Part shown: piece by piece, positions 887-63,508 of the stretch
How positions within the stretch are numbered: the stretch's first letter is position 1
Layout of the letters: each line of letters starts with the position of its first letter
Assembly (NCBI RefSeq): GCF_040954835.1
Contig: NC_090697.1
Coordinates: 26,839,001-26,903,000 of the forward strand
Origin: Lepisosteus oculatus
Taxonomy: Eukaryota; Chordata; Actinopteri; Semionotiformes; Lepisosteidae
Length of the DNA: 64,000 nucleotides
Reading direction: 5' to 3'
The notes under the pieces: generated by a model
Told to the model about the DNA's origin: nothing
The model's database searches: none
Seen by the model: the letters and a program-made list of their open reading frames with translations, nothing else
Translations under genes and position numbers: made by a program

Positions 887-2407
887 TTTGACAACTGGAC
901 AAGGATAAAGTCTTGAGAATGTCAGTGCTCTGCAGCTCCTTGCTGGCGATGATGTGTCTGATGTTGACTAATGGAACTCCTTTGAAGAAAGACGTCCTGG
1001 AGGAAGTTATACATAAGTAAGTCTACAAATGAAATGATGGCTAAAATCTGTTCAGTTTATTGTCATATGCACAAGTGCAATGAAATGCTTATAAAGTGCA
1101 ATGAAATGCTTACACAGGGGTTGCTCACTTTGAACAAAAAGGGTGGCTAAAGATGTAGAATTGTGATGACAGCCCCTCAGACAAAATGACCACGTGGCAT
1201 TCCATCAATTGTTCATTCTCGTATTTAATACAATATACAATTTCATACAATAAAATGACTTGTGTTGTGAAGGTGCTGGAATTTAATCCTTCTAGATCCT
1301 TAATACATCTAGTCCAGCAGGAGACTAGCCTTGGGTAGCACTGGTTAGCACTGCTCCCCTAGGTCCAGTTCCCAGGGTGCTATGTGTTTCGTGTTTGTGT
1401 GGGTTTCCTCTGGGTCTCTGCTTTCTGCCTACAGTCCAGAGATGCTGGTAGGTTAATTGGCTTCTGAGAAAATTGGTCCTGGTGTCAGTGTGTGTGTTTG
1501 TGTCTCAGTGTGTAATGAAACTGAAAATTAGGCCTATTAAGGAATCAATTATTTAATTGAGAGCTCAGTGGAACAAAAACTTGCAACAGGTGGGGTCACC
1601 AGGACCACTACAAACCCCTGGTGAAGGAAGTTCTCTCATTTAACATACAGTATTTCTATTAATAAGCAAAACATTGCCAAATTGCCAATCAAAATTTGTC
1701 TAAAGCTTAAATCAAGTCACTAAAGAAATCTCAAGAGGTATTTTATTACCACCACGTGCTGCGCCGTTCCTGACCTGTAGCCTCCTTGAATTTTCAGCTT
1801 CATGAGTGAGCTTGAGGCAGAGAGGGAGCAGAAGCTGGTGCTCCGGGAGGAGTTCTCCTTCCTGCTGGCGCTCTCCGGTACAGAGTGTCTCGGCGACATG
1901 CCTCCAATGTACATCGCCACGTTCTACTGCAGCTTTGGACGGAAAAAGTTATTTCATCCAATAATAGGCAAGAACCCGTCGCATTTCTACGAGCCTTCAA
2001 ACCTGGTGGCGCTGTTTCCTGTAAAGAGGGGCCGATGCGCTGAGGCCAGCCTGCTGAGGAATGATATCCCAAACTGGTTCGCCAGCCAGCACGAGGTGAA
2101 GTTTAACCGGCTTCATGGCGAGGGATGCCTGATCTTTTTCACCCGGCGCTCCCCATGCTTGAAAAGCAGCACACTGGACCTTTTAAATGACCCACCATTT
2201 AGTGATGAGTGGACAAAGGAAAAGGGTATCCACAAGTATTTCGTGTTTACTGCTGAGTTTCCGAACAGTGGAAGCTGTTTGGACAAGAAGGGTGAGCACC
2301 ATCATGGAAAAGGGAGCTTTGTCCAGGAACACCTCTCTGCCTTTTTAATTCGGAACTGTAAGAGGATGAGCAATACAACTTCCTACACGTGCCAAGATGA
2401 GGACTGA
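887..2407 (+). CDS. Secreted AID/APOBEC-like deaminase-fold protein, probable SNAD-type, degenerate zinc site (2 coding exons; CDS 919-1016 + 1798-2407)
   Basis: Seen: joining 919-1016 to 1798-2407 gives 708 nt, 235 residues and stop TGA. The split codon (AA+C, Asn33) keeps the frame across GTAAGT and TTTTCAG sites. Residues 1-19 form a hydrophobic signal peptide ending LTNG. The body has CAE at 113-115, then a hydrophobic strand running into an SPC motif (Ser151-Pro152-Cys153), as in the zinc site of AID/APOBEC enzymes (HxE, then a WSPCxxC-like motif). There are about eight cysteines in the mature part, a HHH cluster and one N-glycosylation sequon, NTT at 225-227. Known: fish have secreted AID/APOBEC-like deaminases (SNADs), linked to immunity. 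Odd: the final cysteine of PCxxC is Ser156, and the first ligand is Cys, not His. Inference: a secreted deaminase relative, possibly catalytically dead. The gene structure is firm; the family call is moderate. Confidence 0.72.
919..1016 (+). CDS. Deaminase-like gene, coding exon 1 (signal peptide)
   Basis: The exon starts after the acceptor at 884-886, has a 32-nt leader, and its first ATG opens a signal peptide (MSVLCSSLLAMMCLMLTNG). It ends with AA before GTAAGT (1017-1022), phase 2. The exon is too short to stand out as an open frame. It was found by walking upstream from exon 2 to a consensus donor. Confidence 0.8.
1051..1120 (-). repeat. L2-like LINE 3' tail fragment with internal duplication
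   Basis: Read on the - strand it has the usual fish L2 ending: a 'catttcattgcac' motif, then 'gcatatgacaataaac'. The piece AGTGCAATGAAATGCTTA occurs twice in a row (near 1073 and 1095). Confidence 0.5.
1333..1516 (+). repeat. tRNA-derived SINE (family A), degraded copy
   Basis: Shows a weak box A (CTGGTTAGCACTG), a box B-like GGTCCAGTTCCCAGG, then the family body with TGGGTTTCCTC, CAGTCCAGAGATGCTGG and a TG-rich end. It is the same family as the copies at 22.5, 41.6, 55.2 and 63.2 kb. Confidence 0.75.
1798..2407 (+). CDS. Deaminase-like gene, coding exon 2 (whole catalytic-fold region)
   Basis: The exon opens after TTTTCAG and encodes residues 33-235 through the stop at 2405-2407. It carries the CAE (113-115) and SPC (151-153) motifs. 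Glu115 and Cys153 are 38 residues apart, against about 29 in AID, so there is a longer insert. The segment after SPC (KYFVFTAEF) looks like a following core strand. No in-frame stop or frameshift is present, so the gene appears intact. Confidence 0.8.
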
Positions 2408-22530: not shown

Positions 22531-22871
22531 CCATCCATCCATTTTCAAAACGGGGTCATGTGGCAGCCAAAGCCTATCCTTGCAAGCAACAAGGTGCAAG
22601 GCAAGATACACCCTGGATGGTACACCAGTCCATCACCAGGGCAGACACAGACACAGACATGCACACAGTCAGACCAGGACCAGTTTTCCAAAAGTCAATT
22701 AACCTACCACTATGTCACTGAACTGTGGGAAGAAACTGCAGCACATGGAGGAAACCCACACAAATGCAGGGAGAACATGCAAACTCCACACTGATAGGAC
22801 TCCAGGAATGAAACCCAGAGTCTCAGTGCCACGAGGCAGCAATGCTAACCACTGAGCCACTGTGCTGCCCT
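22531..22871 (-). repeat. tRNA-derived SINE (family A), near full length
   Basis: On the - strand the head reads GGGCAGCACAGTGGCTCAGT (box A) and box B lies in 'ggtttcattcctgga'. Then come the family body (TTTGCATGTTCTCCCTG, GGTTAATTGAC) and the 3' part with 'ccatccagggtgtatc'. This is the best copy of the family in the window. Confidence 0.85.
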
Positions 22872-24150: not shown

Positions 24151-25100
24151 AGTGATGATGAGGAGTCCACTTACAGGGATGAAGTTGTACAGCTGCTTAG
24201 GTGGTGTCATAGCAATAACCTGGACTTGAACATAAAGAAAACGAAAGAGCTAATAGTGGACTTTCGGACACAGGCCACACACTCACAGCCCACTCAGTAT
24301 TGATGGAATGGAAGTGGAAACAGTCACCAGCTTTAGGTTTTTGGGAATTCACATCTCTAAAGATCTAACCTGGACTGTGAACACTGACTCTATCATGAAG
24401 AAGGCTCAGCAGCGCCTTTATTTCTTGAGGTGCCTCAAGCGATGGGGGATGCCAATACATGTGTTGGTGAACTTCTACCGCTGCACTATCGAGAGCGTCC
24501 TCACCAACGGGATCACCGTGTGGTATGGCAACACCTCTTTGCGAGAAAGAAAGGCACTGCAGAGAATGGTCAATATGGCCCAGAAGATCATCGGCTGCGG
24601 TCTCACCGAGATTAAACAGCTCTATGAGGACCGCTGCCGTGGTAGAATTCTGGCCATCACAGAGGACAGTCACCACCCAGGGCATGAGCTCTTCACCCCA
24701 CTGCCCTCAGGCAAGAGATATAAGAGCGGTAAGTGTCCGTATAAGAGATATACAGACACTCACCACTAGATTCTTCAATAGCTTCTATCCACAAGCAGTG
24801 AGACTGGCGAACACATTTAGCCATCCCCCTCAGACCACACCTACACCATCACCATCTACCTCATTGTAATTTATTAATTGTACGTCTCCAGTCATTGTTT
24901 ACACGTCTGTATTGTTTACATTCAAACTGTCTGCATGTTTACTTGCACATTGTCTATTGTTTGTTTGTACATTGTCTTGATGCACTGTTTGCACTTTGTT
25001 TTGTTTTTTACACTTGTTTTATAATCGAGAGACTTTCTGTAAGTAAGAATTCCATTGTACCAGTACCGGTTACATATGGCAATAAAGTTCAAGTTCAAGA
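24151..25100 (+). mobile_element. L2-like LINE, 5'-truncated ORF2 end plus 3' tail
   Basis: Seen: the frame from 24151 reads the end of a reverse transcriptase (SDDEESTYRDEV, then WCHSNNLDLNIKKTKEL). It breaks at 24301, resumes in another frame at 24308 (FRFLGIHISKDLTW, then FYRCTIESVLTNGITVWYGN), and shifts again near 24730 into FFNSFYPQAVRLAN. At least two frameshifts make it dead. The 3' tail has the L2-style 'tgtctattgtttgtttgtac' block and ends at AATAAAGTTCAAGTTCAAG. Known: this is the typical C-terminus and tail of fish L2-clade LINEs. Only about the last 250 codons remain. Confidence 0.88.
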
Positions 25101-55166: not shown

Positions 55167-55490
55167 TCAGCATGGTAGTGCAGTGGTTAGCATTGCTGCT
55201 TCACAGTGCTGGGGCCTTGGGTTCAATACCTGGGCTGCTATCTGTGTGGAGATTGCATGTTCTCTCCGTGTTCACCTGGGTTTCCTTCCAGATGCCCCTG
55301 TTCGCTCCCACAATCCAAAGACCTTCTGGTAGGTTAAATGTCTTCTGTAAAATTGGTCCCGGTGTGAGTGTGTGTGTTTGTGTGTCCATGTGCGCTCTGT
55401 GATGGAATGGCATCCGGGGTGTATCCCACCTTGCATCCAGTATTTCCCGGGATAGGTTTCGGGCCACTGGAAAGTGATGTGATGTGATGA
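55167..55490 (+). repeat. tRNA-derived SINE (family A), near full length
   Basis: Box A 'tagtgcagtggttagcat', box B 'gggttcaatacctggg', body with 'tggaatggcatccggggtg', and a GATGT-rich tail. Confidence 0.85.
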
Positions 55491-63164: not shown

Positions 63165-63508
63165 GCAGGGGGGCACAACGAGCAAGGGGTTAGCATTGCT
63201 GCCTGGAGCACCGGAGCCCTGGCTTCAGTTCTTGACCTGGGGTGCTGTCTGTGTGGAGCTTGTATGTTCTCTCCGTGTCCGTGTGGGTTTCCTCCAAGTT
63301 CATCAGTTTTCTCCCACAGTCCAAAGGCATACTGGCAGGTTATCAGGCTTCTGGGAAAATTGGCCCTGGTGCAAGTATATGTACGTCAGTGAGTCTGTGT
63401 GTGTCCTGCGAAGGACTAGTGTCCCAACCAGGTTGTACCCTGCCTTGAGCTCGTTGCTTGCTGGGAGAGACTCTGGCTCCCCCTCCAACCTAAATTGCGG
63501 CGAGTCAG
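63165..63508 (+). repeat. tRNA-derived SINE (family A), near full length
   Basis: Decayed head ('gcaaggggttagcattgctg'), body with 'gttctctccgtgtccgtg' and 'cacagtccaaaggcatactg', and an end in 'gggagagactctggctcc'. The open frame across it is a by-product. Confidence 0.8.

What the first reader, a model, noticed from the sequence alone, without database searches (positions are those of the whole stretch)
919..2407. Secreted AID/APOBEC-like deaminase with a broken zinc site
The spliced protein has a signal peptide, a CAE motif (113-115) and a hydrophobic strand ending in SPC (151-153), the layout of the AID/APOBEC zinc site. The last ligand of PCxxC is Ser156, and the first ligand is Cys rather than His. 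That leaves two of the usual three protein ligands, so the protein may be a secreted pseudo-enzyme with a binding role, or it may use another cysteine. Secreted deaminases (SNADs) are known in fish and tied to immunity; a degenerate member would be new to me.
Basis: partly seen in the sequence, partly recalled or inferred. Interest (0 to 1): 0.8.

Follow-up and report, generated by a model that had tools for sequence, protein, structure and literature searches.

The report
Secreted deaminase-like protein missing zinc ligand
This is an intact two-exon gene for a small, probably secreted protein of the fish SNAD (secreted AID/APOBEC-like deaminase) family that lacks one of the three residues that usually hold the catalytic zinc, so it is probably a secreted relative of an enzyme that no longer works as one.

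Summary
Exons 919-1016 and 1798-2407 encode a 235-residue protein with a signal-peptide-like start. It is a distant SNAD-family member: its only Pfam match is SNAD1 (E 0.0026, under the curated cut-off), and in its own 1.2-Gb genome its only match with E below 1, besides itself, is L004 (E 9e-6), which is over the SNAD1 cut-off. The other SNAD genes found there have a complete C-x3-C pair (4 of 4); this one does not. Two corrections: the residue in register is Ser157, not Ser156, and the chain is 6-8 residues shorter just there, so the cysteine may have been deleted; and Cys as first ligand is not damage in itself, since L004 has it beside a complete pair. The middle cysteines of the C-terminal cluster are missing too. 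Best reading: a secreted, probably zinc-free pseudo-deaminase kept for a non-catalytic role. Not shown: expression, secretion, fold, zinc content, activity. Both structure predictions failed (mean pLDDT 36.4 and 34.7). PMC11004436 already names two SNAD1 sequences without the zinc motif, so this is a variant, not a new kind.

The parts
919..1016 (+). Coding exon 1: signal-peptide-like start and the first residues of the mature protein, ending in phase 2
   Evidence: splice sites, frame; hydropathy; only such exon on the plus strand of bases 1-1790 by a simple pattern
1017..1797 (+). Intron, GTAAGT...TTTTCAG, phase 2; it holds a SINE-like repeat
   Evidence: repeat core matches at 1343-1354 and 1447-1466
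1798..2407 (+). Coding exon 2: whole deaminase-like domain and stop codon
2036..2044 (+). C113-A114-E115: first-ligand and catalytic-Glu position (HxE of SNAD1); C113 falls on PF18744 column 85
   Evidence: fragment mapping; alignment with paralogs
2150..2158 (+). S151-P152-C153: second zinc-ligand position, identical in all four paralogs; C153 falls on PF18744 column 125
2165..2170 (+). S156-S157: where the third zinc ligand is missing; Ser157 is in the C-x3-C register, and 6-8 residues are lacking between C153 and the conserved F167
2276..2305 (+). C193 to H200-H202: Cys/His-rich stretch behind the presumed fourth strand. BLAST pairs C193 with a Cys of L004 (MAFFT does not); no paralog has the three His. 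Possible substitute ligands, untested
   Evidence: reading of the sequence
2357..2392 (+). C220 and C231: they align with the outer cysteines of the C-terminal cluster; 11 residues apart here against 20 in all four paralogs, with no Cys between

Best explanation
The gene codes for a secreted pseudo-deaminase of the SNAD1 branch. Shown by sequence: an intact two-exon frame; family membership through paralog L004; absence of the third zinc cysteine and of the middle cysteines of the C-terminal cluster, each with a shortening of the chain that keeps the frame. Inferred: with only C113 and C153 left, the usual zinc site cannot form and the protein does not deaminate. It is kept as a folded secreted protein for a non-catalytic job, most simply binding nucleic acid or a microbial or host ligand in body fluid with its inherited substrate face, since other SNADs are thought to act in humoral immunity. 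C113 and C153 would sit side by side where the zinc was, and in the oxidising secretory route they could close as a disulfide that replaces the zinc as a staple.
For: Pfam SNAD1 is the only family matched, with C113 at column 85 and C153 at column 125 and no net gap between; a fragment that stops before SPC no longer matches. In the whole genome the only match with E below 1 besides itself is L004, E 9e-6, and L004 is a SNAD1 member (36 bits, cut-off 25). Domain blastp with L004 gives 53.5 bits against at most 23.9 in 2000 shuffles. A profile of the four paralogs ranks the window exon first of 2312 sequences, E 2.9e-5, next best another frame of the window at 0.055, best of 1000 shuffles 0.93. 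The paralogs have the third Cys in 4 of 4 and the window does not. The domain exon starts, at an acceptor-like site, with the last base of a split codon in the window, L002 and L004 (read). Kept reading frame: about 2.8 new stops would be expected per 0.1 unconstrained substitutions per site, yet at about 28% identity to L004 there is none.
Against: The catalytic Glu (E115) and the SPC end of the strand are kept, which a long-dead enzyme need not do. No structure: both predictions have mean pLDDT under 40, and Foldseek on the first found nothing. No expression, secretion, zinc or activity data. No orthologue from another species was available, so selection after the loss is not shown. The direct PF18744 score is under the curated cut-off (18.1 against 25), the family search of the genome did not list this gene even at E 10, and the paralog profile aligns only about 30 residues around the SPC strand.
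Confidence: 0.6

Rival explanations
1. A zinc-dependent deaminase with a moved ligand: C113 and C153 bind zinc together with a residue from elsewhere, for instance C193 or one of H200-H202 in the stretch behind the fourth strand, which in APOBEC proteins (loop 7, recalled) lies beside the active site. The enzyme is then active.
For: E115, C113 and C153 are all kept. The C193...HHH stretch follows the presumed fourth strand, and the three His are absent from the four paralogs. Cys as first ligand stands beside a complete Cys pair in L004.
Against: In the BLAST alignment C193 pairs with a Cys of L004, which has a complete site, so it may have another role (MAFFT in the same call does not pair them). 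No structure supports the geometry. No example of such a moved ligand was looked for.
Confidence: 0.15
2. A gene under relaxed constraint on its way to becoming a pseudogene, not yet marked by a stop or frameshift.
For: Two family-defining features are damaged (zinc Cys, C-terminal cluster). It is a lone copy on another contig (C2) than the other four (C18, C7). No expression evidence.
Against: Intact frame, splice sites and signal-like start; both length losses are multiples of three; third-position G+C is 0.64 against 0.39 at second positions; 15 columns are invariant between the window and the four paralogs.
Confidence: 0.17
3. Assembly or gene-model error: the real gene has the third cysteine.
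Against: It would need in-frame losses at two places, 6-8 codons behind C153 and about 9 at the C-terminal cluster (distances). The one copy found in the genome is the window's own. No frameshift or stop in the frame.
Confidence: 0.04
4. Not a deaminase relative; the CAE and SPC motifs are chance.
For: The direct SNAD1 score is below the curated cut-off. Pairwise identity to the paralogs is only 18-25% in alignment A2. No PDB relative by sequence. No deaminase fold could be predicted.
Against: Genome-wide E 9e-6 to a SNAD1 member, shuffle controls, and the shared exon layout.
Confidence: 0.03

Closest known systems
[quoted passage not shown]
   Same: Signal-type start on its own exon, deaminase-like exon with xE...SPCL, a Cys at the start of the third strand (C143) and the two outer C-terminal Cys, all shared with four SNAD1 members of the same genome
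   Different: First ligand Cys where three of the four paralogs have His, third zinc Cys missing, middle C-terminal Cys missing, score under the curated cut-off
L004, a divergent SNAD1 member of the same genome (contig C18)
   Same: Closest relative found (53.5 bits); also has Cys as first ligand (CSE); both have about two residues more than L001-L003 before the conserved F
   Different: Complete C-x3-C pair and a CxxC-rich C-terminal tail of over 100 residues, absent here
SNAD1 sequences XP_042609327.1 and XP_014353512.1 (PMC11004436, section 19)
   Same: Named as the exceptions without the conserved zinc motif; XP_042609327.1 is also named as lacking the C-terminal Cys cluster
   Different: Their sequences were not seen here, so whether they lost the same residue, or are partial models, is unknown; XP_042609327.1 was predicted there to have a membrane-anchored N-terminus
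Inactivated AID of Gadidae (PMC9795746, passages)
   Same: A fish AID/APOBEC-type gene kept while its activity is lost or very low
   Different: Classical AID, a different branch, and shown by enzymology

Membership tests
SNAD1 / SNAD family | Sequence match to the family profile | tested here: inconclusive
   Only family matched, E 0.0026, 18.1 bits; curated cut-off 25 not reached. Linked through L004, which is over the cut-off
SNAD1 / SNAD family | N-terminal signal peptide | tested here: met
   Hydrophobic start on its own exon; by hydropathy only, no signal-peptide program was on hand, secretion not shown
SNAD1 / SNAD family | HxE motif (first zinc ligand and catalytic Glu) | tested here: inconclusive
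   CAE at 113-115: Glu kept, Cys where three of four paralogs have His, as in L004
SNAD1 / SNAD family | Second and third zinc ligands, CVxxC in SNAD1 (PMC11004436) | tested here: not met
   C153 present, no Cys within the next 11 residues; 4 of 4 paralogs have it at +4
[quoted passage not shown]
   C220 and C231 align with the outer two; the spacing is 11 instead of 20 and no Cys lies between
SNAD1 / SNAD family | Deaminase fold | tested here: inconclusive
   AlphaFold mean pLDDT 36.4 alone and 34.7 with four paralogs
AID/APOBEC enzymes | Cytosine deamination with bound zinc | not testable with these tools
   Bench assay needed
Pseudoenzyme | Expressed and under selection after loss of catalytic residues | not testable with these tools
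   No expression data, and no tool here searches other vertebrate genomes; the viral and prokaryote collections gave no relative

The most novel reading that the evidence does not exclude
A zinc site turned into a disulfide: with Cys already in the first-ligand place in its sub-branch (as in L004), loss of the third cysteine leaves two neighbouring Cys (113, 153), which in the secretory route could bond and hold the old active site shut. The result would be a secreted, zinc-free member of the AID/APOBEC-like superfamily, with an even number of Cys (8) left in the mature chain, kept as a binding protein in fish humoral immunity.
Probability: 0.2. Interest if true: 0.65.

Novelty: new variant of a known kind. 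Interest (0 to 1): 0.42.

Why it matters
SNADs are described as the only AID-like enzymes of multicellular eukaryotes with a predicted secretion signal, and their activity was unmeasured as of PMC8201067 (2021) and PMC11004436 (2024). A natural member without the zinc site beside four complete ones in one genome gives a ready-made contrast: if the incomplete one is still expressed and under selection, some SNAD function does not need deamination.

Tried and rejected
I did not search with the second model. Relatives elsewhere: none in viral contigs; 10 pattern matches and no relative in genome contigs, both collections without vertebrates; no NCBIfam or PHROG match; one chance PDB match at E 1.7. 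SNAD copies elsewhere in the window: none, tblastn gave only the gene itself and matches with E of 1.0 or more. Weak genome hits L007, L008 (E 2.28 and 8.34, each with stops) and L009, L010 (E 3.19 and 8.86) were taken as chance and not studied. A scan for the signal exon upstream of L001-L004 found none with its strict filter; only the acceptor side was compared. L001's acceptor is not clear, so L001 is left out of the phase claim; L003's acceptor was not read. Whether the third Cys was deleted or substituted cannot be settled: MAFFT and BLAST place the gap differently. Rfam (gathering threshold) and tRNA scans of the window: nothing. Krishnan et al. 2018, which defined SNADs, is not held; what is said of it comes from citing papers.

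Papers: PMC11004436 abstract, outline, sections 3, 17, 18, 19 and passages; PMC13402138, PMC9207270, PMC8201067, PMC9795746 passages only; others in search listings only (one search listed 20 of 31 and one search listed 10 of 162).

Full report
What is there. Bases 919-1016 and 1798-2407 form a two-exon frame of 235 residues with a GTAAGT donor and a TTTTCAG acceptor, joined in phase 2. The first 17 residues are strongly hydrophobic, and exon 1 was the only match to a simple signal-exon pattern on the plus strand of bases 1-1790. An acceptor-like tract ends at 886, 32 bases before the ATG, so a 5' non-coding exon is possible (read). Third codon positions are 64% G+C against 39% at second positions, as expected of vertebrate coding sequence. 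A stop-free run of this length in 64 kb is not by itself beyond chance (longest runs in ten simulations 149-260), so the case rests on homology.

Family. The only Pfam match is PF18744, SNAD1: E 0.0026 and 18.1 bits, against a curated cut-off of 25 (E 0.0033 for the joined protein). The reversed mature protein and three shuffles matched nothing (0 of 4). Fragments place C113 on profile column 85 and C153 on column 125 with no net gap between; a fragment that stops before SPC no longer matches. Where the fragment runs further, the match ends at column 127 or 128, just before column 129, where the second Cys of the SNAD1 motif CVxxC (PMC11004436) would fall.

The same genome. The window lies in an unnamed assembly of 1.2 Gb at G000:C2:26839001-26903000. 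It holds four SNAD1 hits over the cut-off: L001 and L004 on C18, L002 and L003 on C7 (again by direct scan). The search states that such counts are lower bounds. The window protein finds, besides itself, one match with E below 1: L004, E 9e-6. Domain blastp against L004 gives 53.5 bits; 2000 shuffles reach at most 23.9. A profile built from the four paralogs alone ranks the window exon first among 2312 sequences (frames of the window and 1000 shuffles) at E 2.9e-5; the next is another frame of the window at 0.055, and the best shuffle 0.93. That profile match covers only about 30 residues around the SPC strand. Against membership, the SNAD1 family search of the genome did not list the window gene even at E 10. 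It is therefore a distant member, tied in through L004. At acceptor-like sites the domain exon begins with the third base of a split codon in the window, L002 and L004 (read).

The zinc site. All four paralogs have xE...SPCLxxC: HSE in L001, HAE in L002 and L003, CSE in L004, and the next Cys at +4 from the PC cysteine in 4 of 4. The window has CAE...SPCLKSS and no Cys within 11 residues behind C153. So the residue in register is Ser157, not Ser156. The distance from C153 to the conserved Phe is 14 here against 20, 20, 20 and 22 in L001-L004, so 6-8 residues are missing. MAFFT places the gap directly after S156 while BLAST splits it; whether the Cys was deleted or changed cannot be decided from five distant sequences. 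Cys as first ligand is shared with L004, whose Cys pair is complete, so it looks like a feature of this sub-branch and not damage; free-cytidine deaminases with three Cys ligands are known (recalled).

A second loss. [quoted passage not shown] The cysteines that align with C220 and C231 are 20 residues apart in all four paralogs, with one to three more Cys between, and 11 apart here with none between (alignment, distances). Both losses keep the frame. The mature chain has 8 Cys (63, 77, 113, 143, 153, 193, 220, 231; positions, signal peptide cut presumed behind residue 13), an even number.

How it most likely works. With only two of the three protein ligands left, the ordinary catalytic zinc is unlikely; PMC11004436 (passage) states that mutation of the glutamate or of any zinc ligand abolishes activity in these enzymes. 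The frame has survived large divergence: one search gives about 2.8 expected new stops per 0.1 unconstrained substitutions per site, and there is none. I infer a secreted pseudo-deaminase kept for binding. The kept E115 and SPC speak somewhat for a site that still matters, which leaves room for a moved ligand (C193 or H200-H202) or for a C113-C153 disulfide. None of the steps after the sequence facts is shown. Structure prediction, which could have helped to separate them, failed.

What is known. SNADs were defined in 2018 (Krishnan et al.; not held, known here through PMC11004436, PMC8201067 and PMC9207270). SNAD1 protein is reported in nurse shark plasma (PMC9207270, passages) and carp blood and seminal plasma (PMC11004436, section 18), and catalytic activity was unknown as of PMC11004436 (section 3). 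Two SNAD1 sequences without the conserved zinc motif are named in PMC11004436, section 19, one of them also without the C-terminal Cys cluster; the parts I read do not discuss them further. The listings (20 of 31 shown; 10 of 162 shown) contained no paper whose title or abstract start was about SNAD pseudo-enzymes. This gene is thus a new variant of a known kind, of moderate interest: useful as a natural zinc-site loss beside four complete copies, but with function unproven.

Noticed in passing
L004:1423-2463: Closest paralog L004 (contig C18) has first-ligand Cys (CSE) with a complete SPCLKYC, and its frame runs on into a Cys-rich tail of over 100 residues full of CxxC pairs; apart from SNAD1 and SNAD2, no Pfam family matched it at E below 1. 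A secreted deaminase joined to a Cys-rich tail may deserve its own look.
   Followed up: partly
L002 and L003 (G000:C7, about 134 kb apart, opposite strands): Two nearly alike SNAD1 exons with HAE and C-x3-C and similar neighbouring frames: probably a recent inverted pair.
   Followed up: no
30297-51589, minus strand: Exons of a two-pore potassium channel; the last exon matches TASK2 (KCNK5) at E 1.6e-40, two others match ion-channel domain PF07885.
   Followed up: partly
about 1320-1520: SINE-like repeat in the SNAD intron; matches to its core elsewhere at 22689-22708, 22839-22850, 55185-55196, 55328-55347 and 63188-63199.
   Followed up: partly
24257-24769, plus strand: Open frame that looks like a retrotransposon remnant; its Pfam match PF09004 (E 2.4e-17) is, as recalled, often hit by such elements.
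   Followed up: no
1073-1112: Perfect 21-base tandem repeat, 1.9 copies, in the intron.
   Followed up: no
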